Below are positions 21,193 through 45,115 of a DNA stretch of 64,000 bases, piece after piece. The position numbers and the translations under genes were made by a program. The notes beneath the pieces were generated by a model. The model was not told the DNA's origin and did no database searches. It saw nothing but the letters and a program-made list of their open reading frames with translations. Every line of letters begins with the position of its first letter. Position 1 is the first letter of the stretch. Origin of the DNA: Bradyrhizobium sp. WSM1417 (GTDB lineage Bacteria > Pseudomonadota > Alphaproteobacteria > Rhizobiales > Xanthobacteraceae); contig NZ_KI911783.1 in NCBI RefSeq assembly GCF_000515415.1, positions 5,505,831-5,569,830 of the forward strand, read 5' to 3'.

Positions 21193-21210
21193 TTGGTGCG
21201 CTCGGAGGGA
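21193..21210. repeat. attL, left copy of the 18-bp att repeat
   Basis: TTGGTGCGCTCGGAGGGA, identical to 45030-45047. The left copy is not part of a tRNA. It is flanked by perfect 8-bp inverted arms, CGCTTGGT (21190-21197) and ACCAAGCG (21211-21218), which could be core-type recombinase binding sites. Confidence 0.85.
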
Positions 21211-23672: not shown

Positions 23673-26600
23673 GTGGCTTCCCCCTTTGCCCTGACCGCCC
23701 CGGTGCTGATCGAGCGCGGCTATTCGCCGTTGCCTATTGCGCCGTGGGGTGAACGCGAGCAGAGTCCGAAAGGCAAAGAGCCCGGCAGGCTCGACGTCAA
23801 TCAAGCCGGTGAGCCGGAGTGGTATAGGCTCAAAAATTGGCAGTTGTTCTGCGACCGGCAGATGCACCCCAAGATCGTCGACTATTGGTCAAACTGGCCG
23901 GATGCTGGAGTGGGCATAGCCACCGGCTTCGGCGGCTTGGTCGCGATCGATATCGACGATGATGCCCTGACTGATCCGATCCTTGCCGTTCTTCCGCCGG
24001 TTAAAGTTGCGAAGCGTGGTCGCAAAGGACTTACCGCGTTTTATCTTGCCGCCGAGCCGCTGCCGTCGAAGAACTACCGCTCCGCTGACAAACGCGGCTT
24101 GCTCGACTTCCTGAGCGGCCGAAAGCAGACCGTACTTCCCCCGACGATGCATCCCGACCTCGCTCGGTCCTATGAGTGGACCACCGAGCGGACGTTGCTC
24201 GATACGTCGCTCAGTGACCTTCCCGAGATCACCGGCGCGCATGTCGCGGCGATGGAGGAAGTGCTTCGCGCATATGGATGGGATGCTCCCGAGCGAGAGC
24301 CGCGTGGCGCTGCCGTTGAACGGCCTACGCGAGGCCAGACAGCCGACGACCTGCTGTGGCACGACGATGTGAATACGGCGGCGCTCGCAAACCTGCATGC
24401 GTGGGTCCCTGCGCTGGGTTTGCCAAAGACCCGCCCGAATGGCGTTGGCTATCGCGCAATCGCGCCTTGGCGTGGCTCGGGCTCGGGCCGTTCTGAGGCT
24501 CAGCGTCAAACGAACCTGTCGTTTCATCCGACCGGAATTTTCGATTTCGGCGACCAAGGCTGGACGCCTATCAAGGTCGTCGCCAAGGCGCGGCGCATTC
24601 CTTACCCGGCTGCGGCGGCATGGCTGCGCCAACAACTCGGATTGCCGGAAGAGCGCCTGATCCTTCTACGCTCAACCAAGTCCGGCTCACTCGCGCCGAC
24701 CTATCCCGACCGCGCCGTTCCACTCGCCAACGCCACCACGGAATTGCGCGGCGCGCTGGACGACTTTGAAGCGCAGATGAAGACGTGGCGCATCTATCGC
24801 AACCAGGCACGTCTCACGTCGCCGCTGATCCATAGGAAACCGCCCGTGTGGGGCGTGAAGATCGACGCTGGCGGCGGCAAGTCATTCCAGGCCGCTCGGA
24901 ATGTCGCCGAGTGGACCCGGCGCGGCTGGCGCCTCGCCTATGTGGTGCCGCGAATCGACCTCGGCGAGAAGATCGCGCTCAATTTGAAGAGCCTTGGCAT
25001 CAACGCGCGGGTCTATCGTGGCCGCGAGCGGGCGGACCCCGACGCACCGGGGCAGACCATGTGTCGAAACCTGCCCGCTGCGACTGCGGCCATTGCTTTG
25101 GGCGTCGGCGTCCGGCCTGCCGTCTGCATGCGCCGGATCGATGGGCCTTTGTTTCAATGTCCGTTCGCTACTGATTGCGGGCATGAGCGCCAGCGCGAGG
25201 CCAAGCCGGATCTTTGGATCATTACGTCCGCATCGCTCCTATACAAAAAGCCGGACTTCCTGCCCGAGCTAGATGGCCTTGTGATCGACGAGAAGTTCCA
25301 CGACAATGCAATTGGCGATACAACGACGATCGATGTGACCGAGCTTTGGCGCGCGAAGATCGAACTTTGCGGCGACGAAGAACACGACTTCCTGCTTGGT
25401 ATGCGCGCAAAGCTGCTGGCGGTGGCAAAGGCGAACGGCGACGGGCCGTTGTCCCGCGCGGCGCTCCAAGATGACAAAGATCACCGCATCTTTTCGCATA
25501 CCGCCCTGCGGGCCGCGACCTTAGAGCAGCGGCGCATCCGGCCGGAAGTTCTGCAACCGGGCATGAAGGAGTCTGGACTTATTCTCGCGCTCCACAATCA
25601 CAGCGATCGGAACCGATTGGCGCGGGATGTTGGCGCCCTCTGGAACGAAATCGCGGTCTTTCTTGCGTTTGACCATCGGCAGTCGGGGCGGATCAGCATT
25701 ACGGGCCGGGCGTTCACGCTGACGCCGCTGCGCCCGTTCGATCCGTCATGGTGGGCGCCGGTGCTCGCCCTGGATGCAACTCTCACGACGCCGGAGATTC
25801 TGCACGCAGCCGTGCTCGGGGACGAAGTCGCTGGCATTCCGGTCGCCGCCAGCGTGAAGGCCGACATCACCATCCAATGGCCGGATTATGTCCACGTTCG
25901 GCAGGTCACCGGCGCACCCGTATCGATGGGCGCCCTCGGAATCGGCGAGAAGGCTAAGCCGCACCCCCGCAATGAGCGGGATATCCTACGCTACATCCGT
26001 CAGCGGGCCGCGCTGATTGCCCCGGAGCGTCTCGGCGTCATTTCTTACCTTGGTATCGAGGAGCGGTTCGCCGGTCGGTTGCCGGCGAATGTGTCTTGGA
26101 TGCACTTTGGTGCAACCTCGGGCCTGAACGATTTTGAAACGGTGGCGGGCCTGGTCGTCATCGGCCGGTGGTGGCTGCCTCCGAACAAAATCGAGGCCCG
26201 CGCGAGCGTATTTGCCGGATACCCGGTCAAGCCTATCGGTGAGTTCTACCGAAAGCGGACTGGCGGCATTCGGATGGCCGAAGGTCCGGCCGCCGCCTCC
26301 AGCGTTGAGTGTCACCCCGACCCGTTCGCCGAGGCCGTCCGTCGTGGCGTCACGGAAGAAGAGCTTGAGCAGGCCATCGGTCGATTGAGGCCGCACCGTC
26401 GAACGGCGCCGTGCTTTCTCGACTTAGTCGGGGAAGTCGTCCTACCGGTTACGGTGGACGAGGTCGTTGAGTGGGGCGCCGTCTGTCCCGGTGCCGAGGC
26501 AGACATGATGGCCGTGGGGGTGGTGTTGTCGAACAGCCGGGATGCCATGACGGCGTTTGGCCTGTCGAAGCATGATGCGGAGCGCGCGAAAACTGCCCCG

Positions 26601-26798
26601 GAATCCTTAAATAGGAATCATATTAAGGAAATCGGGGCAGTTTCTCCGATTCGAAGGTTCAACTATCGCAAAGGCGGCGCACGCGGTCCGGCTAGTACCG
26701 GCTACTATCTCCCCGCCATCCTGCTTGGCGGTGAAGCCGCCTTGCGCGCGTGGATGGAGGAGCGTATCGGGCCGCTTGCATCGCTGGATTTCGAATAG
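23673..26798 (+). CDS. Primase-polymerase/helicase replication protein
   Basis: A 1041-residue protein with GTG start and GGAG before it. Residues about 1-160 look like a prim-pol domain: GYSPLPIAPWG and the metal-binding LVAIDIDDD. The region near 220-320 resembles a linker as in CHC2-like replication proteins. From about 390 there is a helicase core: nucleotide-binding loop DAGGGKSFQA, YVVPRIDLGEK, and the DExx-like LVIDEKF. The P-loop is a variant, lacking the usual Gly/Ala at its start. Cysteines in CRNLPAAT ... CPFATDCGH may bind zinc. Such proteins let satellites and integrative elements replicate after excision. No origin sequence was identified. Confidence 0.7.
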   Translation: MASPFALTAPVLIERGYSPLPIAPWGEREQSPKGKEPGRLDVNQAGEPEWYRLKNWQLFCDRQMHPKIVDYWSNWPDAGVGIATGFGGLVAIDIDDDALTDPILAVLPPVKVAKRGRKGLTAFYLAAEPLPSKNYRSADKRGLLDFLSGRKQTVLPPTMHPDLARSYEWTTERTLLDTSLSDLPEITGAHVAAMEEVLRAYGWDAPEREPRGAAVERPTRGQTADDLLWHDDVNTAALANLHAWVPALGLPKTRPNGVGYRAIAPWRGSGSGRSEAQRQTNLSFHPTGIFDFGDQGWTPIKVVAKARRIPYPAAAAWLRQQLGLPEERLILLRSTKSGSLAPTYPDRAVPLANATTELRGALDDFEAQMKTWRIYRNQARLTSPLIHRKPPVWGVKIDAGGGKSFQAARNVAEWTRRGWRLAYVVPRIDLGEKIALNLKSLGINARVYRGRERADPDAPGQTMCRNLPAATAAIALGVGVRPAVCMRRIDGPLFQCPFATDCGHERQREAKPDLWIITSASLLYKKPDFLPELDGLVIDEKFHDNAIGDTTTIDVTELWRAKIELCGDEEHDFLLGMRAKLLAVAKANGDGPLSRAALQDDKDHRIFSHTALRAATLEQRRIRPEVLQPGMKESGLILALHNHSDRNRLARDVGALWNEIAVFLAFDHRQSGRISITGRAFTLTPLRPFDPSWWAPVLALDATLTTPEILHAAVLGDEVAGIPVAASVKADITIQWPDYVHVRQVTGAPVSMGALGIGEKAKPHPRNERDILRYIRQRAALIAPERLGVISYLGIEERFAGRLPANVSWMHFGATSGLNDFETVAGLVVIGRWWLPPNKIEARASVFAGYPVKPIGEFYRKRTGGIRMAEGPAAASSVECHPDPFAEAVRRGVTEEELEQAIGRLRPHRRTAPCFLDLVGEVVLPVTVDEVVEWGAVCPGAEADMMAVGVVLSNSRDAMTAFGLSKHDAERAKTAPESLNRNHIKEIGAVSPIRRFNYRKGGARGPASTGYYLPAILLGGEAALRAWMEERIGPLASLDFE

Positions 26799-28491: not shown

Positions 28492-29619
28492 TCAATCCTC
28501 ATCGACGTCGCTCTTATAGATCTTATTCAGCATATTGAGCTCTATGCCGATGCTCCGCGTTCTCAGCGCCTCGTTCCGCGCGGAGAATAATATCGCGAGT
28601 TGCGATTTGAGGTCACCGAATCGCGCGTGGTGAAACTTCCGATGGCATCCCGGGCACAACGCCACAATGTTTTCCGGAACGTCCAAGCTAACCTCAAAGT
28701 CGCCCTGGCACTGCATTGGGATCAAGTGGTGGGCTTCAACGAATGGCTTTTTGGTCTTTCGTGAGGTGAAAGTCGTATGGCCAGGTCCCATTTCGCACTG
28801 ATGGCTGGCGGATTGAATTGCGATCGCTGCCATCTCGGGGTTGCGCTGATATTTGCCCGCCTGCATTCCGTTGACTTTGGGGGGACGCGGCAATCCCCCT
28901 TCTGGCAATGATTTGCTTGATGGCTCCGTTGCGATTTCGTTGGCGGCCTCCTGATATTCTTCTGAGGACATTGATTGGAGGTGATCTAGTAAATTAGAGC
29001 CTAGCTTCGTTACCAGCCCGTCGTACAGGTCCATGAGCTGAATGAGGTCATTTCGGAATTTATCGCTCGAGATTTCTTCTCCGACGCCATAGCGGCGACT
29101 GACGATCGCACCATTTTCGTAGCCTTTTCCGAGCGTGTTGGTCGCACGGAGGTCGAGCCGACCAGCAATTAGTCCAGCGGGGGGCCGCAACGTCTCGATC
29201 GCCAAGCTAGCTACCTGGGCGATTTTCTTGTTGCCTATGGTATCACCAAACGCCTTCCGAAATTGGGTAAAGCCTTGATTGAGCGAGAGGAAGCAATTCT
29301 GCATGTCCTGACTAAATAGCAGGACAACGTAGTACCCACGCTCGGTGGACGTCGAGATGTCTCGCCGTAGAATGGCGACCCATGGGATGTAGGCGAGGGT
29401 CCAATTTATTTGGCCAACAGACCCGTATATTCGATATTTATTGACGTCTCTTCCAGAGTCCGAGACAAGCTGCTCAATAAGCTTGGGCAATTCCTTGGTG
29501 ATCGTAGTATCGACTTCAAGATCATTCCCGGACGTCAGTTTTCGTCTGATCTTGACGCCGCCAACGACTTGCTCCGAATTTGGAAGGTAGTCTGCGAAGA
29601 CCTTGTCCAGCTCGAGCAT
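28492..29619 (-). CDS. MrcB-N (DUF3578)/HNH endonuclease, putative modified-DNA restriction enzyme
   Basis: A 375-residue protein. Residues about 1-190 fit the MrcB N-terminal domain (DUF3578): INWTLAYIPWVAIL, STERGYYVVLLFSQDMQNCFLSLNQGF. The C-terminal part (about 270-345) is an HNH nuclease: FVEAHHLIPM ... NIVALCPGCHRKFHH with zinc Cys pair and catalytic His. This domain pair is known from restriction proteins that cut methylated DNA, so a type IV-like defence role is likely. It is a single gene, converging on the coiled-coil gene. Confidence 0.8.
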   Translation of the reverse strand: MLELDKVFADYLPNSEQVVGGVKIRRKLTSGNDLEVDTTITKELPKLIEQLVSDSGRDVNKYRIYGSVGQINWTLAYIPWVAILRRDISTSTERGYYVVLLFSQDMQNCFLSLNQGFTQFRKAFGDTIGNKKIAQVASLAIETLRPPAGLIAGRLDLRATNTLGKGYENGAIVSRRYGVGEEISSDKFRNDLIQLMDLYDGLVTKLGSNLLDHLQSMSSEEYQEAANEIATEPSSKSLPEGGLPRPPKVNGMQAGKYQRNPEMAAIAIQSASHQCEMGPGHTTFTSRKTKKPFVEAHHLIPMQCQGDFEVSLDVPENIVALCPGCHRKFHHARFGDLKSQLAILFSARNEALRTRSIGIELNMLNKIYKSDVDED

Positions 29620-36138: not shown

Positions 36139-37368
36139 TCATTCCTCTTCATCGTTAGGATCGTAAAAATAGTAAGTTAGATCAATCCTTGGATAATTCA
36201 GCGAGATTAGTCGATCCACAACCTCTAGGCCCAAGCCCGGACAATCTGGCGGTGTATCGAGCTCGCCTCCCTCGTACTTCCGCCTCAAGGCTTCGAAAAA
36301 CTCGGATTCAAAAGTACCCCAACCTTGAAACGCGATTGGAGTGCCGCGATCAAGCATGGTCTTCCTAAGCGTAGCCCAAGTGGTAAATCCCTCGGCCCTC
36401 GGAGAGCAGAACGGCCTTAAAAAACTACAACCAAATTCCTTGATCTCATCAAGCGAGTTGCCATGACCTAGAGGGTCAAACTCACTCACTATCTTAATCC
36501 ATCGGGTTTGCATTTCTGTAGGTGTCTCGTCTTCGGAGAGAGCCAAGAGAAAGCGGTCCGCCGATTGAAATGGCGCAAAATTGCCAAAAGTAATGCTGTA
36601 TGGCGCGAGGCTTTCGGTCCATTCGTCCTTCCAAAGAAACGCGAATCCGTGCCCCTTCTGTGCGTTACCCTTGTTCGCAAGAGCAAGCATTGCCGCTTTC
36701 ATTTGTATTTTATAGGCGCCTAATCGGTTTCTGTCGGCAGGGTCGCCGCGCAGTTCATCGTCGTATAAACACAACTGATAGCCACCAATGTAGTGTTCAC
36801 CTATTTCTAGCGCGGCTTCGGCGTCGGCAAAGTCGCCGACCGATTTGACCTGCAATCGCCGTTTGCCGTTACGTTCGAGGGGCTCTAAGCAGATGATGTT
36901 CCTCTGCATCCAAAAAATTTCGTGCAAAATGTGGTGCCTGAGTAGCACCGGCCACTGGGTGGAGATTACGACGTTGATTGTATCTCCATCCGAGAGGAAA
37001 GGCAGATACGCGCGAACCTCGGCAGCATAGGCTCCAAGTTCCGTGCCCGCCTGTCTAGTTGGACCGGCCAAATTTTTTAACTCAACGATTATCAAGCTTT
37101 GGGTCTCAGCACCGTACAGCAGAAAATCAGGATACAGCTCATCACCCGGCTTCAACGAGATGTTCTCGTCGTCGGAAATGACTTCGGTAACGTACAGAGA
37201 TTCCAAGCTATAGCGGAAGCTCTCAAAAACCCGCTTTTGTCGAGGATCACTAGGCGCTGCGCCGCTCAACGCGTCCGCATTTTCGATAAGGTCGCCAAGA
37301 GCCTGACCGCCTGCAAAGCAATCGCGCAGCCATTGGTGCATCTCTGCTTCATCAACGAATAAGGCCAT
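36139..37368 (-). CDS. PD-(D/E)XK-like nuclease, third gene of the Gabija-like operon
   Basis: A 409-residue protein. In the N-terminal half a nuclease-type core is visible: E of FESFRYSLESLY, then YPDFLLYG (Asp) and IIVELKNLAG (Glu-x-Lys), followed by a helix with conserved Gln/Glu. That is the order of PD-(D/E)XK nucleases; the general layout recalls Shedu-type (DUF4263) proteins, but I could not confirm this. The C-terminal 190 residues (about 215-409) are an uncharacterised mixed domain. The gene follows the UvrD-like gene after 21 bases, so it is likely part of the same operon and defence module. Confidence 0.6.
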   Translation of the reverse strand: MALFVDEAEMHQWLRDCFAGGQALGDLIENADALSGAAPSDPRQKRVFESFRYSLESLYVTEVISDDENISLKPGDELYPDFLLYGAETQSLIIVELKNLAGPTRQAGTELGAYAAEVRAYLPFLSDGDTINVVISTQWPVLLRHHILHEIFWMQRNIICLEPLERNGKRRLQVKSVGDFADAEAALEIGEHYIGGYQLCLYDDELRGDPADRNRLGAYKIQMKAAMLALANKGNAQKGHGFAFLWKDEWTESLAPYSITFGNFAPFQSADRFLLALSEDETPTEMQTRWIKIVSEFDPLGHGNSLDEIKEFGCSFLRPFCSPRAEGFTTWATLRKTMLDRGTPIAFQGWGTFESEFFEALRRKYEGGELDTPPDCPGLGLEVVDRLISLNYPRIDLTYYFYDPNDEEE

Positions 37369-37389: not shown

Positions 37390-39120
37390 TCAAAGCGATA
37401 CGATCTGCGCCGCGTGGCCACCCGCATCGAGGATCGCCTTCAACGCAGGGGCACGGCTGTTGGGGGCAGCAATCGCCAACAATCGCTCAGCACGGGATGC
37501 AGCAACGTAGATTTTCCGAGCTTCTTCGACGGGCTTAGTGGCCATCTCCGCGCCGGTCAGAACATTCAAGATATCTCCTGTCGTTCTGACGGTGAGCACG
37601 ACGCAGACCGCCAGAAACTCCAAGCCTTTGACCGCATGAATCGCCTTGGCCGGAAGAGCAGTTGGGGATGGCTCCGCGAGCACGGCTGTTAACTTTTGAT
37701 TGTATCGCAGCCTCTGACCAATGCTGGGGGAGCCGACAAGATCAGAGCCCAGCAAAGCGCGAGCACGCTTGAGCCAATCCTCAGCGCTCTCCCCGGCGAG
37801 AACTTTCAACGCCTGACCTATGGCGACAACGTCCGGACGCCAGCGGCCATCATCAAGACCGCTGTTGAGCATGTGAGTTGAATAGGCTCCCGCGCTGGAG
37901 ATTTCACCCCGCACTTGCAGTATCGCTCGATGCAAGCGGGCAAGCGCTTCCCGGCGATTGCCCGCCGCGAAGGCGAAATGGAAGCCCATAACGGCCTCGG
38001 CCAAAAGAAGGGACTTATCATTACCTGCCTCGGGCACGGCCCGTCCAACCGCATTCCCCGCGCTGGCCCAGGTAGCCGCCAGCACTGGTGCCTGCTCCGG
38101 CGGAATGCCGAGGTCCGATGAGATCTTTTGGAACCGTGCGCCGATCGATGCAGGAACGCTCGTGCCGCCATAAGCCAGGATGTAAACTGGCGCAGTCTCG
38201 TTCTTATATTGCCCAACCGCTTGGTCAACCGCACCGCGCGAGGCGGGTGGACGCAGCTGCGATATAGCGGCGCAGATCGCGGGAGACGAACGGAAATTGC
38301 CGCTCATTTGCAGCTGATCGATTTCGTCGAACTTCTCCGCAAACCTTATAAGCTCATCCGTGAGGCCGCCCCGAAACGCGTAGATCGCTTGGTTGGGATC
38401 GCAAACGACTTTGATGTTAATGCCAGAGGCTCGCAACCATTCGACAATTTCTAGGTCCGTGGAATTGCAATCCTGAGCCTCATCAATGACGATTTCGCGG
38501 AATCGACCGCAGAGAGCCGCGCCCAGCCGGCCTGAGGAGGTCCGGTCGGCAAGGCGCTTACCGACGCTGTCGCGGACATCGTCGAAATCTAGATGTCCAT
38601 TGGATAACGCTCGGGCGATCATATTGCGCGCTCTCGTCTCCCACGCGGCTGGTCCATGCTTGGGCGCAAACCCTGTCTCAGCTGCCTTATCAGCGAGCAG
38701 TGTGCCGGTAGCCCTGTCGAAATGTTTTAGTTTGAGCGTGTGCGCTGCGTCGAAAGGCTTGACCTCCCAATCGGACTTGTCTGGCACGAGCCTTGGGAGT
38801 TGGTTGCACCCGTCCACACCGAATGGCGCGATGAAAAACTGCCAGAGAAATCGATCAAACGTGCCAACAAAGCTTGGAAACAGTGGCGACGGCAGAATGC
38901 CGAAGTTGCGCAAACGCGTTTCTAGCTCCTCGACCGCCGCATTCGTGAATGAAAGAAAGGCAAGGCCGCGTCGGTCAGCCGCGTTTGACAAAAGATGTCG
39001 CGCGCGCTCGACCATGGTGCGTGTCTTCCCTGCGCCGGGGCATGCTCGCACGAATGCATGGCCTTCGTGTCCAATGATCGTCTGTTGCTCCTTAGTCGGC
39101 AGGAAGGCGCCAGCGGTCAC
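37390..39120 (-). CDS. UvrD/Rep-type SF1 helicase (Gabija GajB-like)
   Basis: A 576-residue superfamily 1 helicase. Walker A CPGAGKTRTMV (about 29), motif Ia FLSFTNAA, motif II IVIDEAQDC, motif III VVCDPNQAIYAFRG, motif V IHAVKGLEFLAV and motif VI YVAASRAERL are all in order. Start GTG 39120 overlaps the stop of the OLD-type nuclease gene by four bases (GTGA), so the two are coupled. In Gabija the helicase (GajB) works with the OLD-family nuclease (GajA) to degrade phage DNA. The typical GajB is about 500 residues, so this one is somewhat longer. Confidence 0.8.
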   Translation of the reverse strand: MTAGAFLPTKEQQTIIGHEGHAFVRACPGAGKTRTMVERARHLLSNAADRRGLAFLSFTNAAVEELETRLRNFGILPSPLFPSFVGTFDRFLWQFFIAPFGVDGCNQLPRLVPDKSDWEVKPFDAAHTLKLKHFDRATGTLLADKAAETGFAPKHGPAAWETRARNMIARALSNGHLDFDDVRDSVGKRLADRTSSGRLGAALCGRFREIVIDEAQDCNSTDLEIVEWLRASGINIKVVCDPNQAIYAFRGGLTDELIRFAEKFDEIDQLQMSGNFRSSPAICAAISQLRPPASRGAVDQAVGQYKNETAPVYILAYGGTSVPASIGARFQKISSDLGIPPEQAPVLAATWASAGNAVGRAVPEAGNDKSLLLAEAVMGFHFAFAAGNRREALARLHRAILQVRGEISSAGAYSTHMLNSGLDDGRWRPDVVAIGQALKVLAGESAEDWLKRARALLGSDLVGSPSIGQRLRYNQKLTAVLAEPSPTALPAKAIHAVKGLEFLAVCVVLTVRTTGDILNVLTGAEMATKPVEEARKIYVAASRAERLLAIAAPNSRAPALKAILDAGGHAAQIVSL

Positions 39121-41078
39121 GCCACGACCTCGCGGATGGTCTTTTCGATGTAGGCCGGCACGACGAATGCGAAGGATTTCTTCTCTATCAGATCGGCCAA
39201 CTTCTGGGCGAAGTCGCCCTTGCGCGCATTTTTGAAGATCGCTCCGATGGCCCTCGCCCGCTCGTCACCTGCGAGTGCTGCGGCCCTATCCCACCTGTTG
39301 CCGGACCGAGGGTGCATACTCAGGTAGGCGGCGCGGAGAATGGCTTCGTTGCCAGCCTCAAGTAGTTCGCTTTCTAACGAGTAGCGCGAGGTAATCGCGG
39401 CCATAATTTCAGATGCACCATTTGCCATTGCGAGCGCATCCAATGCGCGCTTGCGTCGCTCTCCGGGGATGATCCTTTCCTCGTGCGCCACGGAAAACTT
39501 GCTACCTGTTGGTCGGCTTTCGTCAGCGCTTGGATCGTTATCTTCATTCTCGTCGTGGTCGGTCATACCGTCACCATCCGTCATGATTACGACCCGCTCA
39601 GCGATGCGCGCCTCGTTAATTGGGCGTGTCAGAAGGTTGGCATACGGACTGAAGTCGACGCCATCAATCGGAACAAATACGGCTGAGCGAAAGAGGCGTA
39701 ACTGCTCCGGCTTATCCTTGAGGGTGAAGTATTCAGCGATTACTGGGAGCAGGAGGGCTTCCGCAATCCCCTCTATTAGGAGAACGCGCCCGCCGAACAG
39801 CAAGGCCGCCTTTGTCACGTCGAGGTAGCGATCGATCTTCCGTCGTTCGAGGTCGTTCAATTCTATCTGAGCGAGAGGGATGCAGCGGGTCGATCGGCGA
39901 AGCGCGGCTGCGGCGGCAGTCGTCACCAGCCCTTCGATAAAATCGGCTGGATCGTCCGTGCCCTTTGCGATCCCGGTCTCAATGACAGCCGCATCGGCAG
40001 CGGCCGGCGCCCCTTCTTCGTTAAGGGCGTCAGATATCGTCGGGGGCGCAGGCAAAACCGATTTGAAAACCACTAACTGCTTGCTGCTAACCCAGGCGGA
40101 CAGGTTTGGCGAATGGCTGGCGACGATAACCTGCACTTGACCTGCCGGCCCATGTTTAGGCGTGTCGACTTCCGACTGAACAGCTTGATCCTTTAAGAAT
40201 GCTAGAACCGCCGCCTGAAGCTGCGGATGAAGATGTGCTTCAGGCTCCTCCACTAGAAACAGAGTCAGATCAGAATTGCGCACCTTCTCTAACTCAACGG
40301 CGATAGTCGCCATGAATAAAAGGTTCGCGTAACCATGGCCTGAGTATTGCAAATCTTCTGGATGGACGCCGTGGTCGGCTAGCTTGAATCTTAGATCGCG
40401 CGCGATATCGATTAGAGTTTCTTGCGCAGCGAAGCCTAGGGCGGCCGACTGAGGCCGGACACCAGCAGTCAACGCTGTTAGACTCTTGCCAACGGCCTGA
40501 TCCACCTTGGAGAGCACGGCATGGTCAGCGCGTCGGGCTAAGTCGCGCGCGAGGTCCGAGGCCGAAACATCCCCAAGAAAGTGATTTAGGAGGGCTGTGA
40601 TACGGGTGGGATTTCCGGAGGCCAACGCGCGCTTGGCGTCGCGGAGAGGCGGCAAGTAAACATGCCGGATCATGTCATGGCAGCCGGGCTCTGGTTGGTT
40701 GCCAGGCTTGCCTGCCCAAAGGCCCGGTCGATCGCCGAGGCCGCCGCCATAACGTAGGCCGAACCGTGCTTCGGAAAGCGTCGTGTCCGTGCTTGCGGAG
40801 ATCAGCCGCCCCTGTTGGCCTGCACTGAGATCGGCGAAGACAGCTTCGAGCTCAAAGCCTCCAGTTTGGCTTTGGAAACGTACATCGGTGGGCTCACAGT
40901 AAATCTCCCGACGTCCCCCGAGCGGCTGGGTCAAAAGTCGGATAGCGTCAATGGCGTTGCTCTTGCCTCCATTGTTCTCGCCGACGAATACCGTGAGATC
41001 CTTCTGAAGCTCCACCTCGCCCGTGTCGAACGAACGGAAATTCTGCAGCGCGATTGATTTTAAGTACATCGAATCCAT
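39117..41078 (-). CDS. OLD-family ATPase/TOPRIM nuclease (Gabija GajA-like)
   Basis: Start ATG 41078 with a G-rich ribosome binding site; a longer frame upstream is not needed. 653 residues. N-terminal ABC-type ATPase: Walker A FVGENNGGKSNA (about 30), Walker B LFLVEEPEAHLHPQ (about 250) and the H-switch VIVASHSPNLS. C-terminal TOPRIM domain: RVLLIEGIAEALLLPVIAEY and the DxD-like VVIMTDGDGM. ATPase plus TOPRIM defines OLD nucleases; pairing with a UvrD-type helicase defines class 2, including Gabija. It is longer than the roughly 580-residue GajA model, mostly in the ATPase and the C-terminus. First gene of a likely three-gene operon. Confidence 0.8.
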   Translation of the reverse strand: MDSMYLKSIALQNFRSFDTGEVELQKDLTVFVGENNGGKSNAIDAIRLLTQPLGGRREIYCEPTDVRFQSQTGGFELEAVFADLSAGQQGRLISASTDTTLSEARFGLRYGGGLGDRPGLWAGKPGNQPEPGCHDMIRHVYLPPLRDAKRALASGNPTRITALLNHFLGDVSASDLARDLARRADHAVLSKVDQAVGKSLTALTAGVRPQSAALGFAAQETLIDIARDLRFKLADHGVHPEDLQYSGHGYANLLFMATIAVELEKVRNSDLTLFLVEEPEAHLHPQLQAAVLAFLKDQAVQSEVDTPKHGPAGQVQVIVASHSPNLSAWVSSKQLVVFKSVLPAPPTISDALNEEGAPAAADAAVIETGIAKGTDDPADFIEGLVTTAAAAALRRSTRCIPLAQIELNDLERRKIDRYLDVTKAALLFGGRVLLIEGIAEALLLPVIAEYFTLKDKPEQLRLFRSAVFVPIDGVDFSPYANLLTRPINEARIAERVVIMTDGDGMTDHDENEDNDPSADESRPTGSKFSVAHEERIIPGERRKRALDALAMANGASEIMAAITSRYSLESELLEAGNEAILRAAYLSMHPRSGNRWDRAAALAGDERARAIGAIFKNARKGDFAQKLADLIEKKSFAFVVPAYIEKTIREVVA

Positions 41079-41283: not shown

Positions 41284-42336
41284 ATGACGCCCGAACAGCT
41301 TATAAGGACTATGCGCGGCCGCGTGCCGTTCGATATCGCTCGGAAGATCCTCGAGGCTCACGAAATCGAAAGAGGTATGGGATGGGACAGTACGCAGCAC
41401 CGCTTCTTACAAAACGACTTCGATGAAGAGGTGCTTGAAAGCCTAGGTGAAGCGCTCAAGCAGCATATATTGTGCGGCGAGAAATCTATTCGCTTTTATA
41501 GATTGAACAGGGCCTCTATGGAAGCGCTTCGAAACTCCGTTGGACAAGTCACGGTGTCTAACAGCAGATTTCAGCGAGCTTATCCTGCCCAACTTGATGA
41601 CTCAGAAATTGACGGCCGCATTCGCCCCCCGACATTGGCGGCAATCGAGCAGAATGATGATGGCGTCGGCTTGGTCTTTGCATCAACCAGGGCATTTCAT
41701 AAACGCGAGCACATTGACCCGAGCACGCTCGGTGATGATGCCGCTTCGGCTCTGGAGAACTACGATGAAGTGATCGGTATTTCCCTGCAAAAATACCAAG
41801 CGATGGACGTCGTTTGGATTCCGCACAGAGGGAATTATGCGGAGATTAGGATCGACTATCCTAAGGGCATGCACGCGGATACCTTGGAAGCCGCGCACAA
41901 TTCCACTAAGCTTTTATTTGAGAATGTTCTCGACAGAGATGCGCTACCTAATCCAGTGAACCTCTTTCCGCTAATTCAGAAAATCTACGACGCGGCAAAC
42001 GAAGGGCATGTGGTGGAGTTAGGTTTCGGCACCACAACCGGGTCTCTGAAGCACGAAAAAATGAGAAGAGGACGCCTCTGCTTGCGCAGAGAAACCTATC
42101 ATCGCGGTGGAAAGAACGCGCTCACTACGCCGATCGAACCCTACAACCTCAGCGTCAGATGGCGAGTGACGTTGGGAGAGATAATATCTCATCCGGAGCT
42201 GAGCTTGCACGGCAACGCGCGCATTGCAGCCTCAGCCAATCCGACGATTCATGAAATGACGGTTCGAGGCTGTGTAGGAGCCGCAGATTACGATCACGTT
42301 CGCGACCGTGTTGAGCACTTCCTTCGACAACCCTGA
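41284..42336 (+). CDS. Unknown protein, first gene of a three-gene operon
   Basis: A 350-residue protein from ATG 41284, preceded by GGGGGAA. An in-frame TTG 15 bases upstream is also possible. Predicted mixed alpha/beta with acidic and basic stretches; segments like MTPEQLIRTMRGRVPFDIAR and RVTLGEIISHPELSLHG are well formed, so the gene appears intact. No motif of a known nuclease, ATPase, TIR, Sir2 or protease is visible. The gene is followed after 8 bases by a second and then a coupled nuclease gene. Confidence 0.6.
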   Translation: MTPEQLIRTMRGRVPFDIARKILEAHEIERGMGWDSTQHRFLQNDFDEEVLESLGEALKQHILCGEKSIRFYRLNRASMEALRNSVGQVTVSNSRFQRAYPAQLDDSEIDGRIRPPTLAAIEQNDDGVGLVFASTRAFHKREHIDPSTLGDDAASALENYDEVIGISLQKYQAMDVVWIPHRGNYAEIRIDYPKGMHADTLEAAHNSTKLLFENVLDRDALPNPVNLFPLIQKIYDAANEGHVVELGFGTTTGSLKHEKMRRGRLCLRRETYHRGGKNALTTPIEPYNLSVRWRVTLGEIISHPELSLHGNARIAASANPTIHEMTVRGCVGAADYDHVRDRVEHFLRQP

Positions 42337-42344
42337 ATCGGTCC

Positions 42345-42758
42345 ATGCCGAATATCGACGAACTGAAAGCTGAAGTTAAAGAGAGCTGGCGCGATAGCCC
42401 GCTCCTTCAAGCTTGCCTGTCGATAATTGATTATTTGAACAAGTTGCCGCTTGATGAAATGCAAATGCTCACCTTCAGCTCGTTCAAAGAGGCAGTTGGG
42501 GAAAAAGATCTAACAGAAGACGTAGTTCGCGCTGTCGCGCTATTGGCAAATACATCAATACATGCGCTCGACGCTAAGCTCTTGTTCATTGACGATGATG
42601 ATAACGAGTTTGAGTTGGAAAAAAGCGACTTAGCTGATGCTCGTCACAGAGGTGAGTTTTTTCACCCCGAAACGGGGATTGGCATTCGAGATTTTGAGTC
42701 AAAGATCGTTCCGTATTTTGTTCCCTCTCAACGGTTCTTAGATCTCAAGGGCCGCTAG
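42345..42758 (+). CDS. Unknown small acidic protein, second gene of the operon
   Basis: A 137-residue acidic protein; a helical part (about 1-60, LQACLSIIDYLNKLPLDEMQ) is followed by an acidic strand region (LFIDDDDNEFELEKSDLADA) and an alpha/beta C-terminus. The final TAG overlaps the GTG of the nuclease gene by one base (TAGTG). The shape is that of an adaptor or regulatory subunit, which is only a guess. Confidence 0.6.
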   Translation: MPNIDELKAEVKESWRDSPLLQACLSIIDYLNKLPLDEMQMLTFSSFKEAVGEKDLTEDVVRAVALLANTSIHALDAKLLFIDDDDNEFELEKSDLADARHRGEFFHPETGIGIRDFESKIVPYFVPSQRFLDLKGR

Positions 42759-43492
42759 TGAAGGGATCAATCACGATTCAAGACTTGAAGGCTCTCGCGG
42801 CAGGACGTCCCGGCGCCGAGATTGCTATCGGCTTACTCTTCGTAGCGGACTATCCGACGTTTGTTGAGATTATCAATCGTGCCATTGATACAGCATTCAG
42901 ACGAATGGCTGAGAACCCCGAGCTTCGGAAGAAACGGTCGGAAGATGAGCTGACAATCGAGCTCATCAACCTTCTGAAGCAAAACGACATAGACGCGCAT
43001 CACGAAGCGAAGGTCGGCGGTCATTGCGACATAACTATACGTGGACCGAACGACTTTGCTTGGCTTGCCGAAGCGAAGCGCCATAATAAGGGGTACCCGT
43101 GGCTCTATCAGGGCTTCCAACAGCTCAATACGCGATATTCAACCGGGCTGCCCCAGCATGATAAAGGCGGCTTGATCATCTATACGTATATGCCGAATAC
43201 TTTAAACCAGATGGAAAAGTGGAGTGAATATCTAAGAGCCAACCAGAAAGGACTCGTCGTTTCGCCTTATGGAGCTGACCCCCTCTCTTTTCTCTCGACC
43301 CACGAGCATGAAAGGTCAGGACTCCCTTATGAGGTTCGCCATATTCCACTCAACTTGTATTTCGCTCCGAGAGACAAAGCGAAACCGACGACAACGAAAA
43401 AACACAAAAAAGGTGTAAGCAAAACGTCGGCTTCAGTAAGCGGAGTCGCAGCCCGAAAGAAATCCAAAAGAAGACCAAGAGGAAAGCTGTGA
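42758..43492 (+). CDS. PD-(D/E)XK-like nuclease, last gene of the operon
   Basis: A 244-residue protein starting at GTG 42758, coupled to the previous gene. The core is: E in the helix SEDELTIELINLL, then HHEAKVGGHCDITIRG with the Asp, then FAWLAEAKRHNKG with the Glu-x-Lys, followed by a helix and YQGFQQLNTRYSTGLP. This matches the PD-(D/E)XK restriction fold. The last 45 residues are Lys/Thr-rich, a basic tail for DNA or RNA contact. It is the likely effector of the three-gene unit. Confidence 0.7.
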   Translation: MKGSITIQDLKALAAGRPGAEIAIGLLFVADYPTFVEIINRAIDTAFRRMAENPELRKKRSEDELTIELINLLKQNDIDAHHEAKVGGHCDITIRGPNDFAWLAEAKRHNKGYPWLYQGFQQLNTRYSTGLPQHDKGGLIIYTYMPNTLNQMEKWSEYLRANQKGLVVSPYGADPLSFLSTHEHERSGLPYEVRHIPLNLYFAPRDKAKPTTTKKHKKGVSKTSASVSGVAARKKSKRRPRGKL

Positions 43493-43538: not shown

Positions 43539-44891
43539 TCAGACGATAGCCGGGTCGAACGGATAGACGATCTTCATCAACTCTTCCTGATACAGCTTCA
43601 GCGATCCGCCCGACCCATACTTCTCGCGGTCGATGCTGTGCCCCATCAGAATCTTCCGCAGTTCGTCGTCAATCCGGCCTTCCTTCAGGCGATCCTCGAA
43701 CGTGTGCCGGAAACCGTAGAGCGTTTCCTTGCCGGTCGGCTGTAGCTTGTTCTCCTTTAGGAACTTGTTCACCGTCTGCGACAAGGTGTTGCCGGTGTCG
43801 CGATAGCGCGGGAAGCCGTCAGGGTGGAGCTTCATCGCTTCGAGCGCGACGCCGACCAACGGGATGCGGCGCACCGACGACACGGTCTTCACTTCATGCG
43901 GTTCGTCGGGATCGAAGGATGGCTCGACAAGAATGTGCGGGACCTTGTCGTCGAGCTTGATGCGATCCTTCCGCAGATAGCGAAGCTCGATTGGGCGAGC
44001 GCCGGTCTCGATGCAGACGAAGACGATATGGCGAGCGTCATCATTCATGCCCGCGAGTGCGCCCGGCTTCAGGATCACGTCGCGCACCCATTCAATCGGG
44101 AACGGAAGGCGGCGCTTCTTGAACTTTTGGTTGAAGGACAGGCCGTCGAATGGATTGGGCCGCCCCTCGACACCGATATGGGCATAGTAGCGCTTGTAGA
44201 GGATGCTCATGTCGCCCAGGCGGCGCTTGCCGAGCGAGGCCGACTTCTTGTCCGCCTTCGCGTCCTTCGGCGCGATCAGCCCCTTGAAATGGTCGTGCAT
44301 CTTCTTGGCGTGGTCGCGCGTGATGTCGTCCATGGCGAGGTCTTCGCCGACGACCTTGGTGAACGCCTCGACCGCGTACCGCTTGACCTTCTTCCACGAC
44401 TTCTTCTGCTCTTCGCTCTTGCCGACGATCTCGACCGCCGCGATCTCATTGCAGTAAATGTCGAAGGCTTCGCTGACCTTGACTGAGCGATCCACGCCGC
44501 CCAGAACGGCGGTCTCAACGGCCATCGGCCTCCGCGCGTCAGAGATCGCAGTGAGGCGTCTGACGAGGTCTTCGATTGGAAGCTGCGCAATCTCCACCGC
44601 CGGACGGTGGGCGAAGCCAAGGGCCTCCGCGCGGGCACGGGCGACCTTGTGAGCGGCCATCGCCGCGTCGGTCCTGGCGTGCGTCAACATGGACGCCCAC
44701 AGGACGTTGTCGGCTTCTTCAAGGATGTCCCGGCACGCCCTGGCTTTCGCTAGATCGTCTGTCTTGAGCGACTGCCGGATCAGCGGCACGCGGCCGTCGA
44801 GATCCACGACGACCTTCGGAACTCGCCGCCAGTAATAGTAGACGCCGTCCCGCAGAAGCAGAAAGCGATCCTGACTCCCCTGCCTTACCAC
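43539..44891 (-). CDS. int: Tyrosine recombinase (island integrase)
   Basis: A 450-residue phage-type tyrosine recombinase. GTG start with GGGGAG upstream. N-terminal and core-binding parts (about 1-240) contain SAM-like helices. The catalytic half has the Arg in IETGARPIELRYLR, the second block in LYGFRHTFEDRLKEG, the His of GHSIDREKYG and the Tyr of that same block (or the later LKLYQEE). In the HxxR block the usual His is Tyr (YGFR). It lies 139 bases from the tRNA-Leu end, the position expected of an island integrase. It should catalyse integration and excision at the 18-bp att repeat. Confidence 0.9.
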   Translation of the reverse strand: MVRQGSQDRFLLLRDGVYYYWRRVPKVVVDLDGRVPLIRQSLKTDDLAKARACRDILEEADNVLWASMLTHARTDAAMAAHKVARARAEALGFAHRPAVEIAQLPIEDLVRRLTAISDARRPMAVETAVLGGVDRSVKVSEAFDIYCNEIAAVEIVGKSEEQKKSWKKVKRYAVEAFTKVVGEDLAMDDITRDHAKKMHDHFKGLIAPKDAKADKKSASLGKRRLGDMSILYKRYYAHIGVEGRPNPFDGLSFNQKFKKRRLPFPIEWVRDVILKPGALAGMNDDARHIVFVCIETGARPIELRYLRKDRIKLDDKVPHILVEPSFDPDEPHEVKTVSSVRRIPLVGVALEAMKLHPDGFPRYRDTGNTLSQTVNKFLKENKLQPTGKETLYGFRHTFEDRLKEGRIDDELRKILMGHSIDREKYGSGGSLKLYQEELMKIVYPFDPAIV

Positions 44892-45029: not shown

Positions 45030-45047
45030 TTGGTGCGCTCGGAGGGA
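45030..45047. repeat. attR, right copy of the 18-bp att repeat
   Basis: TTGGTGCGCTCGGAGGGA, matching 21193-21210. It covers the 3' end of the tRNA-Leu gene, from one base past the CCA into the T-arm, so the tRNA stays intact after insertion. Confidence 0.85.
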
Positions 45048-45115
45048 CTCGAACCCCCACGATTTTACTCACTGCCACCTCAAGGCAGCGCGTCTACCAA
45101 TTCCGCCACGAGCGC
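45031..45115 (-). tRNA. tRNA-Leu (anticodon GAG)
   Basis: An 85-base tRNA on the minus strand. Acceptor arms GCGCTCG and CGAGCGC pair fully; discriminator A is followed by an encoded CCA. The anticodon loop is TTGAGGT within CTGCC/GGCAG, so the anticodon is GAG (codons CUC and CUU). A long variable arm of class II type and a T-arm GGGGGTTCGAGTCCCTC are present. Integration target of the island. Confidence 0.95.

What the first reader, a model, noticed from the sequence alone, without database searches (positions are those of the whole stretch)
41284..43492. Uncharacterised three-gene operon ending in a PD-(D/E)XK-like nuclease
Three tightly spaced genes (8-base gap, then TAGTG coupling) encode a 350-residue unknown, a 137-residue acidic unknown and a 244-residue nuclease-like protein with E...GGHCD...EAK. 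They stand divergently opposite a Gabija-like operon inside a tRNA-integrated island, the context where new defence systems are found. Neither of the first two matches a family I know. This could be a new anti-phage system in which the first two genes sense or deliver the nuclease.
Basis: partly seen in the sequence, partly recalled or inferred. Interest (0 to 1): 0.75.

Follow-up and report, generated by a model that had tools for sequence, protein, structure and literature searches.

The report
Bait-swapping guard nuclease cassette
Three small neighbouring genes form a mobile module in which a predicted DNA-cutting enzyme sits behind a small adaptor and an exchangeable partner protein, in other bacteria a restriction enzyme, a translation factor or a ribosomal protein, as expected of an alarm that notices when a virus tampers with that partner.

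Summary
The three genes are real, at the stated coordinates, in a 23.8-kb tRNA-Leu island opposite Gabija. None reaches a Pfam, PADLOC or NCBIfam cut-off; all match PHROG families of unknown function. The order ORF1-ORF2-nuclease recurs in 88 of 107 tallied nuclease loci, in proteobacteria, cyanobacteria, Actinomycetota, prophages and plasmids. The PD-(D/E)xK residues are kept in at least 102 of 103 rows. The surprise lies in the exceptions: there the ORF2 domain (predicted winged helix) ends another protein just before the nuclease: type ISP restriction enzymes (7), HsdR, an MmeI-like enzyme, a helicase-like protein, a FeeM-like acyltransferase, an extra EF-Tu (88% identical to two housekeeping copies) and an extra ribosomal protein S3. 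In four cyanobacteria the nuclease ends a NACHT-HEAT-type protein. Well-supported branches force at least seven partner changes. Type ISP, HsdR and MmeI-like partners keep their own nuclease motifs, so the cassette does not replace a lost activity. Best reading: ORF2 couples a swappable bait or sensor, here ORF1, to a DNase fired when the bait is attacked. A lone ORF2 on a conjugative plasmid could be an antidote. Defence, DNase activity, bait role and ORF1's trigger are inferred; nothing was tested at the bench.

The parts
41284..42336 (+). ORF1, 350 aa: common N-terminal partner (proposed bait/sensor); only family phrog_12777 (unknown function)
   Evidence: AlphaFold2 pLDDT 92.4, pTM 0.90
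42345..42758 (+). ORF2, 137 aa acidic adaptor; predicted winged-helix-like domain with a C-terminal HPxTG segment; phrog_11490
   Evidence: (modelled in the homologue P0014)
42758..43492 (+). ORF3, 244 aa PD-(D/E)xK-type nuclease, basic C-terminal tail; phrog_9664
42941..42946 (+). nuclease E62-D63 (helix before the core)
   Evidence: E62 in 103 of 103 rows, D63 in 97 of 103
43016..43030 (+). nuclease GGHCD motif with D91
   Evidence: D91 in 103 of 103 rows
43070..43078 (+). nuclease EAK motif, E105 and K107
   Evidence: 102 of 103 rows each
43539..44891 (-). tyrosine-type integrase (DUF6538; Phage_integrase below cut-off), convergent with ORF3
45031..45115 (-). tRNA-Leu(gag), attachment gene
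45030..45047 (+). direct repeat, att copy at the tRNA 3' end
21193..21210 (+). direct repeat, far att copy; island about 21193-45047
39117..41075 (-). GajA (Gabija), divergent neighbour; context, not part of the cassette
37390..39120 (-). GajB (Gabija), context

Best explanation
A mobile three-gene guard module. ORF3 is a PD-(D/E)xK DNase effector. ORF2 is a winged-helix-like adaptor that keeps the DNase silent and ties it to a partner protein. The partner is a bait or sensor that phages or other invaders tend to attack; in the window it is the separate protein ORF1, and elsewhere ORF2 is fused to the end of the bait. When the bait is bound, modified or cut, ORF2 changes state and frees the DNase, which degrades DNA and stops the infection or the cell. 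Shown by computation: operon, conserved nuclease motif, order conservation, mobile settings, ORF2 fusions, repeated partner replacement. Inferred: silencing by ORF2, triggering by bait damage, DNase activity, the role of ORF1, anti-phage outcome.
For: Constant part is ORF2-nuclease, variable part is what precedes it: ORF1 in 88 of 107 tallied loci; type ISP in 7, HsdR, MmeI-like, helicase-like, FeeM-like and EF-Tu once each, S3 once. Tight coupling: of 104 loci with both, ORF2 and nuclease are at most 8 bases apart or overlap in 103 (longest-ORF starts); in L105 they are 1,278 bases apart. On a tree of 92 nucleases, with rows of unknown partner left out, the ORF1 label needs 7 changes and starred branches force all 7 (the first tree of 107 rows gave 11 and 9, but three of those changes came from a contig edge and partnerless rows). 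EF-Tu, S3, FeeM and HsdR partners lie among ORF1 rows. EF-Tu and S3 partners are extra copies beside other copies in the genome, 88% and 63% identical, as expected of decoys. Type ISP (7 of 7), HsdR and MmeI-like partners keep their own D..(E/Q)xK motifs, read by eye, so ORF3 is not a replacement nuclease. Precedents: PrrC-EcoprrI, PARIS and Ronin sense anti-restriction (PMC12409349, section 10 read); T4 Alt and ModB ADP-ribosylate EF-Tu and ModB also S1 (PMC3014915, passages); ModB RNAylates rS1 and rL2 (PMC10468400, passages). Carried between tRNA and integrase in two E. coli prophages looked at.
Against: No bench data. ORF1 has no assigned fold or function. EF-Tu, S3, FeeM, HsdR, MmeI-like and helicase-like fusions were each seen in one locus; the S3 locus is a 3.3-kb contig and its ORF2 domain scores only about 21 bits. 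No phage that modifies S3 is cited. ORF2 is absent from the four NACHT-HEAT-type fusions, so the nuclease can work without it. Packing of ORF2 against the nuclease was not predicted with confidence (pTM 0.56). Three ORF2-nuclease pairs had no detectable partner (L019, L136, L137). Ten of the 13 fusions are to restriction or helicase-like proteins, which also fits docking.
Confidence: 0.52

Rival explanations
1. Docking model: ORF2 is a recruitment domain that brings an auxiliary DNase to DNA engaged by the partner (restriction enzyme, or ORF1 as a DNA- or RNA-recognition protein). The nuclease cleaves invader DNA directly, not as a suicide response.
For: Ten of the 13 ORF2 fusions are to restriction enzymes or helicase-like proteins, and one diverged nuclease lies inside a type III restriction operon (L122). 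Auxiliary and backup nucleases beside BREX are described in PMC12839542 (passages).
Against: Does not explain EF-Tu, ribosomal S3 or FeeM partners. Type ISP, HsdR and MmeI-like partners already have intact nuclease motifs.
Confidence: 0.25
2. Addiction (toxin-antitoxin) cassette of mobile elements: ORF3 toxin, ORF2 antitoxin, ORF1 and the other partners stabilise the antitoxin.
For: Acidic ORF2 before basic ORF3, tight overlap; carried on prophages, islands and plasmids down to 6.1 kb; orphan ORF2 on a conjugative plasmid.
Against: A pure addiction pair needs no third gene of 350 aa kept in 88 of 107 loci, nor repeated swaps to restriction and translation proteins.
Confidence: 0.13
3. The partner proteins are themselves effectors and the nuclease is one of several outputs, as proposed for variable domains, EF-Tu included, in the conflict systems of PMC7159879 (section 33 read).
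For: EF-Tu is listed there as a variable domain of a two-gene conflict system.
Against: Here the nuclease is constant and the partner varies, the reverse of that layout; EF-Tu and S3 have no evident killing activity (recalled, not tested).
Confidence: 0.05
4. Not a defence module: accessory DNA-processing genes of the elements themselves.
For: Often next to the integrase.
Against: Unrelated carriers (a PM2-like virus, tailed-phage prophages, plasmids, genomic islands) and fusion to restriction enzymes.
Confidence: 0.05

Closest known systems
PrrC-EcoprrI and Ronin (restriction-linked suicide effectors)
   Same: A latent nuclease or toxin is held by a restriction complex and released by an anti-restriction protein (PMC12409349 section 10; PMC3014915 passages)
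   Different: PrrC is an anticodon nuclease; here a PD-(D/E)xK enzyme with a dedicated adaptor domain that is also fused to EF-Tu, S3 and a FeeM-like protein. Sequence comparison with PrrC or RonA beyond the PADLOC and Pfam models was not run
PARIS (AriA-AriB)
   Same: Sensor protein paired with a released nuclease
   Different: No match of ORF1-3 to any PADLOC model, AriA among them
NACHT/STAND defence proteins such as Avs
   Same: A cyanobacterial member puts this nuclease on a NACHT-HEAT protein (L004)
   Different: Nuclease is C-terminal after HEAT repeats; the main form has no NTPase. The N-terminal position in Avs is recalled, not tested
Effector-associated-domain conflict systems (PMC7159879)
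   Same: Small non-enzymatic coupling domains, exchangeable modules, EF-Tu among the variable domains (section 33, passages)
   Different: Those pair duplicate coupling domains and vary the effector; here one adaptor, constant nuclease, varying partner
Gabija (window neighbour)
   Same: Same island, divergent
   Different: Separate operon, no shared families

Membership tests
PD-(D/E)xK nuclease superfamily | D...(E/D)xK active-site motif conserved | tested here: met
   D91 103 of 103; E105 and K107 102 of 103
PD-(D/E)xK nuclease superfamily | alpha-beta-beta-beta-alpha-beta core | tested here: met
   Secondary structure of the model of the homologue P0014; comparison with solved folds could not be run
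PD-(D/E)xK nuclease superfamily | DNA cleavage | not testable with these tools
   needs protein
Known restriction-modification module | methylase, helicase or specificity subunit in ORF1-3, or a curated restriction model matching them | tested here: not met
   none for the window genes in Pfam, PADLOC or NCBIfam; only sub-cut-off matches to unrelated models
PADLOC-listed defence system | match of ORF1-3 or distant members to any of 5027 models | tested here: not met
   no match for the window at E up to 1; for 10 distant members only two weak ones, E 0.27 and 0.018. PADLOC-DB is of 2023; later systems not covered
Winged-helix domain (ORF2) | helix-strand-helix-helix-strand-strand order | tested here: met
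   H21-33, bridge at 42, H44-50, H58-68, E75-82, E88-91 in P0014, pLDDT mostly 92-98 there; no fold comparison possible
Guard/decoy defence (PrrC, Ronin, PARIS type) | effector physically linked to a protein that invaders target | tested here: inconclusive
   ORF2 is fused to restriction enzymes, EF-Tu and S3; its link to the nuclease rests on gene adjacency and one natural fusion, P0014, on a 1.2-kb contig
Guard/decoy defence (PrrC, Ronin, PARIS type) | effector released when the bait is attacked | not testable with these tools
   needs infection assay
Toxin-antitoxin | toxin lethal alone, neutralised by the partner | not testable with these tools
   needs expression
Avs/STAND | STAND NTPase in the system | tested here: not met
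   absent from the window operon; a nuclease at the end of a protein over 600 aa in 4 of 54 genome loci, of which L004 alone was run against Pfam (NACHT)

The most novel reading that the evidence does not exclude
A general-purpose bacterial tripwire: one adaptor domain (ORF2) can be appended to any vulnerable protein, restriction enzyme, elongation factor or ribosomal protein, turning it into a decoy whose disturbance releases one and the same DNase. ORF1 is the most widespread, so far unrecognised, bait. Mobile elements carry free ORF2 as an antidote.
Probability: 0.4. Interest if true: 0.93.

Novelty: new variant of a known kind. Interest (0 to 1): 0.8.

Why it matters
Guard and decoy immunity is known in bacteria from single cases, each with its own proteins. 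Here one adaptor-nuclease pair appears to have been refitted at least seven times to different partners, including duplicated core translation proteins. That would give a readable record of which bacterial proteins invaders attack, a way to predict phage and plasmid counter-measures, and possibly a part that can be moved onto a chosen bait. It also gives three phage protein families of unknown function (phrog_12777, 11490, 9664) a testable role.

Tried and rejected
Rejected: chance operon (order recurs); known restriction module; ORF3 as a replacement for lost restriction nuclease (motifs intact in type ISP, HsdR and MmeI-like partners; L031's own nuclease was not assessed). Sub-cut-off family matches set aside: Ku_N E 0.026 and CBM_26 0.19 for ORF2, RRP14 0.31 for ORF3, VanS-O 0.041 for ORF1. 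PDB sequence searches gave PH-domain and Cas7 chains at E 0.28 or worse and nothing for ORF2. Class-wide searches found only the own genome (1 of 385 with ORF2 alignment A4; 1 of 385 with nuclease alignment A7). A DNA search of E. coli genomes with an Enterobacter cassette found none; with a diverged prophage cassette 16 of 5,426. Viral scans with ORF2 alignments gave one already known contig and none. Ribosomal S3 matches in the phage collection look like bacterial DNA filed as phage and were not used; two are Acinetobacter phage MD-2021a records, which makes L093 a doubtful phage. An alignment of the S3 bait with the other S3 did not run, since the script found no second sequence; the 63% is. 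Literature searches listed no paper that, from title and abstract, describes this module (115, 116 and 139 asked about background); the library holds open-licence papers only, no supplements were read, and searches returned zero.

Dropped rows: 30 nucleases were left out of the structure alignment by a motif pattern. In the first tree L054 and L077 and re-fetched copies (L109-L121, L138) were left out; in the second also the contig-edge row, rows without a partner, the long-branched type III row and near-copies. Viral loci include near-copies of each other and of genome loci, so locus counts are not independent events. Of 25 viral loci fetched, 8 were classified, the others having been taken for repeats of earlier contigs.

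Full report
OBSERVATION. Gabija genes face away from them (GajA, GajB). An integrase and tRNA-Leu(gag) follow. An 18-bp direct repeat at 45030-45047 and 21193-21210 marks a 23.8-kb island; the operon has 50.2% G+C, the window outside the island 64.3-64.7%.

FAMILIES. No match at or above a curated cut-off in Pfam or NCBIfam and none at E up to 1 in PADLOC for the three proteins, and nothing convincing among PDB sequences. PHROGs places all three in families of unknown function: phrog_12777, 11490 and 9664. Homologue searches gave 80 proteins for ORF1 and 15 for ORF2, the own copy included, and 43 for ORF3.

NUCLEASE. Over 103 distinct rows (window and loci L001-L108) E62 is kept in 103, G88 in 103, D91 in 103, E105, K107 and Q122 in 102 each. 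The AlphaFold2 model of P0014, a natural ORF2-nuclease fusion from a 1.2-kb contig, shows the alpha-beta-beta-beta-alpha-beta core expected of PD-(D/E)xK enzymes. It also shows ORF2 as a separate confident domain with winged-helix order of elements. The packing of the two is not confidently predicted (pTM 0.56).

DO THE GENES STAY TOGETHER. A genome-contig scan with the nuclease alignment gave 54 loci, a viral-contig scan 37. ORF1-ORF2-nuclease in that order: 37 of 54, 37 of 37 (one search did not display ORF2 of L077; it is there), and 14 of 16 loci taken from annotated phage, plasmid and E. coli records. Those 16 are 3 of 5 phage records, 11 of 18 plasmid records and 2 of 16 E. coli genomes hit. 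ORF1-ORF2 spacing is at most 30 bases in 88 of 90 measured pairs; ORF2 and nuclease overlap or lie at most 8 bases apart in 103 of the 104 loci that hold both (starts are those of the longest ORF, so overlaps are upper limits). In the own family ORF1 was found in 3 of 391 genomes and the nuclease in 5 of 391; all three ORF1 copies belong to a full cassette. Five viral loci found with ORF1 as query, four of them on contigs already seen, all hold the full cassette. Eight viral loci classified later also hold it, one with ORF1 split. The module is rare: 16 of 5,426 E. coli genomes by one DNA query and none by another, 4 of 394 in the family of L029, only the own genome among 385 of the class.

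SETTINGS. In the two E. coli genomes looked at it lies between tRNA-Ser and the integrase of a prophage. Of ten downstream genes on the other strand in viral contigs (L067's not the nearest) five are integrases, one a sub-cut-off integrase match, two tail hub proteins, one DUF968, one Beta protein below cut-off. It also occurs on a PM2-like virus of Vibrio and on plasmids down to 6.1 kb.

THE EXCEPTIONS TELL WHAT ORF2 IS. In 11 of 54 genome loci, one plasmid (L103) and one further genome (L134) the ORF2 domain is the C-terminus of a larger protein directly before the nuclease. Partners by Pfam: type ISP restriction enzyme in seven (L006, L009, L011, L012, L014, L021, L026); HsdR next to HsdM (L010); an MmeI-like enzyme (L103); a helicase-like protein (ResIII just below its cut-off) after an Eco57I-type methylase (L031); a FeeM-like N-acyltransferase (L022); EF-Tu (L029); ribosomal protein S3 (L134). 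Four cyanobacterial loci fuse the nuclease to the end of a 1142-1204 aa protein; L004 was run against Pfam and is NACHT-HEAT, the other three share its layout by eye; none of the four has an ORF2 or ORF1 match even without filters. In G512 a diverged nuclease sits between Res and Mod of a type III system; an ORF2-like end of Res there is seen by eye only.

DECOYS RATHER THAN HOUSEKEEPING GENES. The EF-Tu of L029 is a third copy, 88% identical to two other tuf genes of the same genome, with its GTPase motifs and the RGITIST stretch intact, and stands after an HD-domain and an HATPase gene. The S3 of L134 is a second copy, 63% identical to the other one, after an S24 repressor gene. That the other copies are the housekeeping ones is inferred from their number and similarity; their operons were not examined.

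INDEPENDENT SWAPS. The first tree of 107 nucleases needed 11 changes of the ORF1 label, 9 forced by well-supported branches, but that counted a contig edge and rows without a known partner. A second tree of 92 rows without these, without the long-branched type III row and without near-copies needs 7 changes, and well-supported branches force all 7. NACHT is one clade; EF-Tu, S3, FeeM and HsdR lie among ORF1 rows. ORF1 is thus the widespread and probably older partner, replaced again and again.

MECHANISM. Type ISP, HsdR and MmeI-like partners keep their own nuclease motifs (D..QCK 7 of 7, D..ELK, D..EYK; read by eye, motif names recalled). So ORF3 adds a second, conditional activity. Restriction enzymes, EF-Tu and ribosomal proteins share one property: phages attack them. 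T4 Stp inhibits EcoprrI and thereby activates PrrC; PARIS and Ronin respond to anti-restriction proteins (PMC12409349 section 10). T4 Alt and ModB modify EF-Tu, ModB also S1, and the Gol peptide with Lit leads to EF-Tu cleavage (PMC3014915 passages); ModB also modifies rL2 (PMC10468400 passages). No source seen here names S3 as a target. I therefore favour a guard: ORF2 holds the DNase and reads the state of the bait. Docking of an auxiliary nuclease is the main rival: it fits the ten restriction or helicase-like fusions of 13, but not EF-Tu, S3 or FeeM.

A POSSIBLE ANTIDOTE. A Stutzerimonas plasmid with Dot/Icm-type transfer genes carries a lone ORF2 homologue (141 aa, 41.5% identical to a type ISP ORF2 domain; 102.7 bits) in a run of small same-strand genes. 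No nuclease relative was found in that record by three tblastn searches. Anti-defence genes in plasmid leading regions are in print (PMC11541004, search listing only); whether this run is a leading region was not tested.

NOVELTY. I found no description of the module in the literature searches listed under Tried and rejected. EF-Tu as a variable domain of a different two-gene conflict system is in print (PMC7159879 section 33). The logic is of a known kind; the proteins, the adaptor principle and the translation decoys appear new.

Noticed in passing
L170:6989-7414 (NZ_CP142123.1 44322-44747): Orphan ORF2 homologue on a conjugative plasmid in a run of small same-strand genes, no nuclease found in the record: possible antidote.
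   Followed up: partly
L134:743-1804 (minus): Second copy of ribosomal protein S3 fused to an ORF2 domain, next to the nuclease.
   Followed up: yes
L029:8251-9969 and L029:3612-8140: Third EF-Tu copy fused to ORF2; just upstream an HD-domain protein (833 aa) and an HATPase_c_3 protein (651 aa) on the same strand.
   Followed up: partly
window 36139-37368 (minus): 409-aa protein beside GajB with only a weak YhcG_C match (E 0.052); perhaps another nuclease of the Gabija side.
   Followed up: no
window 28492-29619 (minus): 375-aa protein with an HNH-like C-terminus by eye, inside the island; possible further restriction gene.
   Followed up: no
window 23673-26798: 1041-aa protein that by eye looks like an element-encoded primase-helicase, suggesting an integrated element of its own.
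   Followed up: no
L122:1889-10683: Type III Res, diverged ORF3-like nuclease, Mod and GmrSD in a row; Res end resembles ORF2 by eye.
   Followed up: partly
L136 and L137 (G881): One genome with two ORF2-nuclease pairs and no detectable partner gene; DUF6946 lies twice near L137's pair.
   Followed up: partly
L105:2102-5639: Cassette interrupted between ORF2 and nuclease by about 1.3 kb.
   Followed up: no
L145:6386-7452: ORF1 in two pieces in two ORFs.
   Followed up: no
H42, NZ_CP158503.1 1184343-1187377: E. coli copy of the cassette with an IS1 element among the features under the match.
   Followed up: no
L093 / H86, H87: 'Acinetobacter phage MD-2021a' records carry rpsC and ordinary metabolic genes, so they look like bacterial assemblies filed as phage.
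   Followed up: no
L096:2920-3993: Cassette on a Pseudomonas plasmid next to an AbiEi-family antitoxin gene.
   Followed up: no
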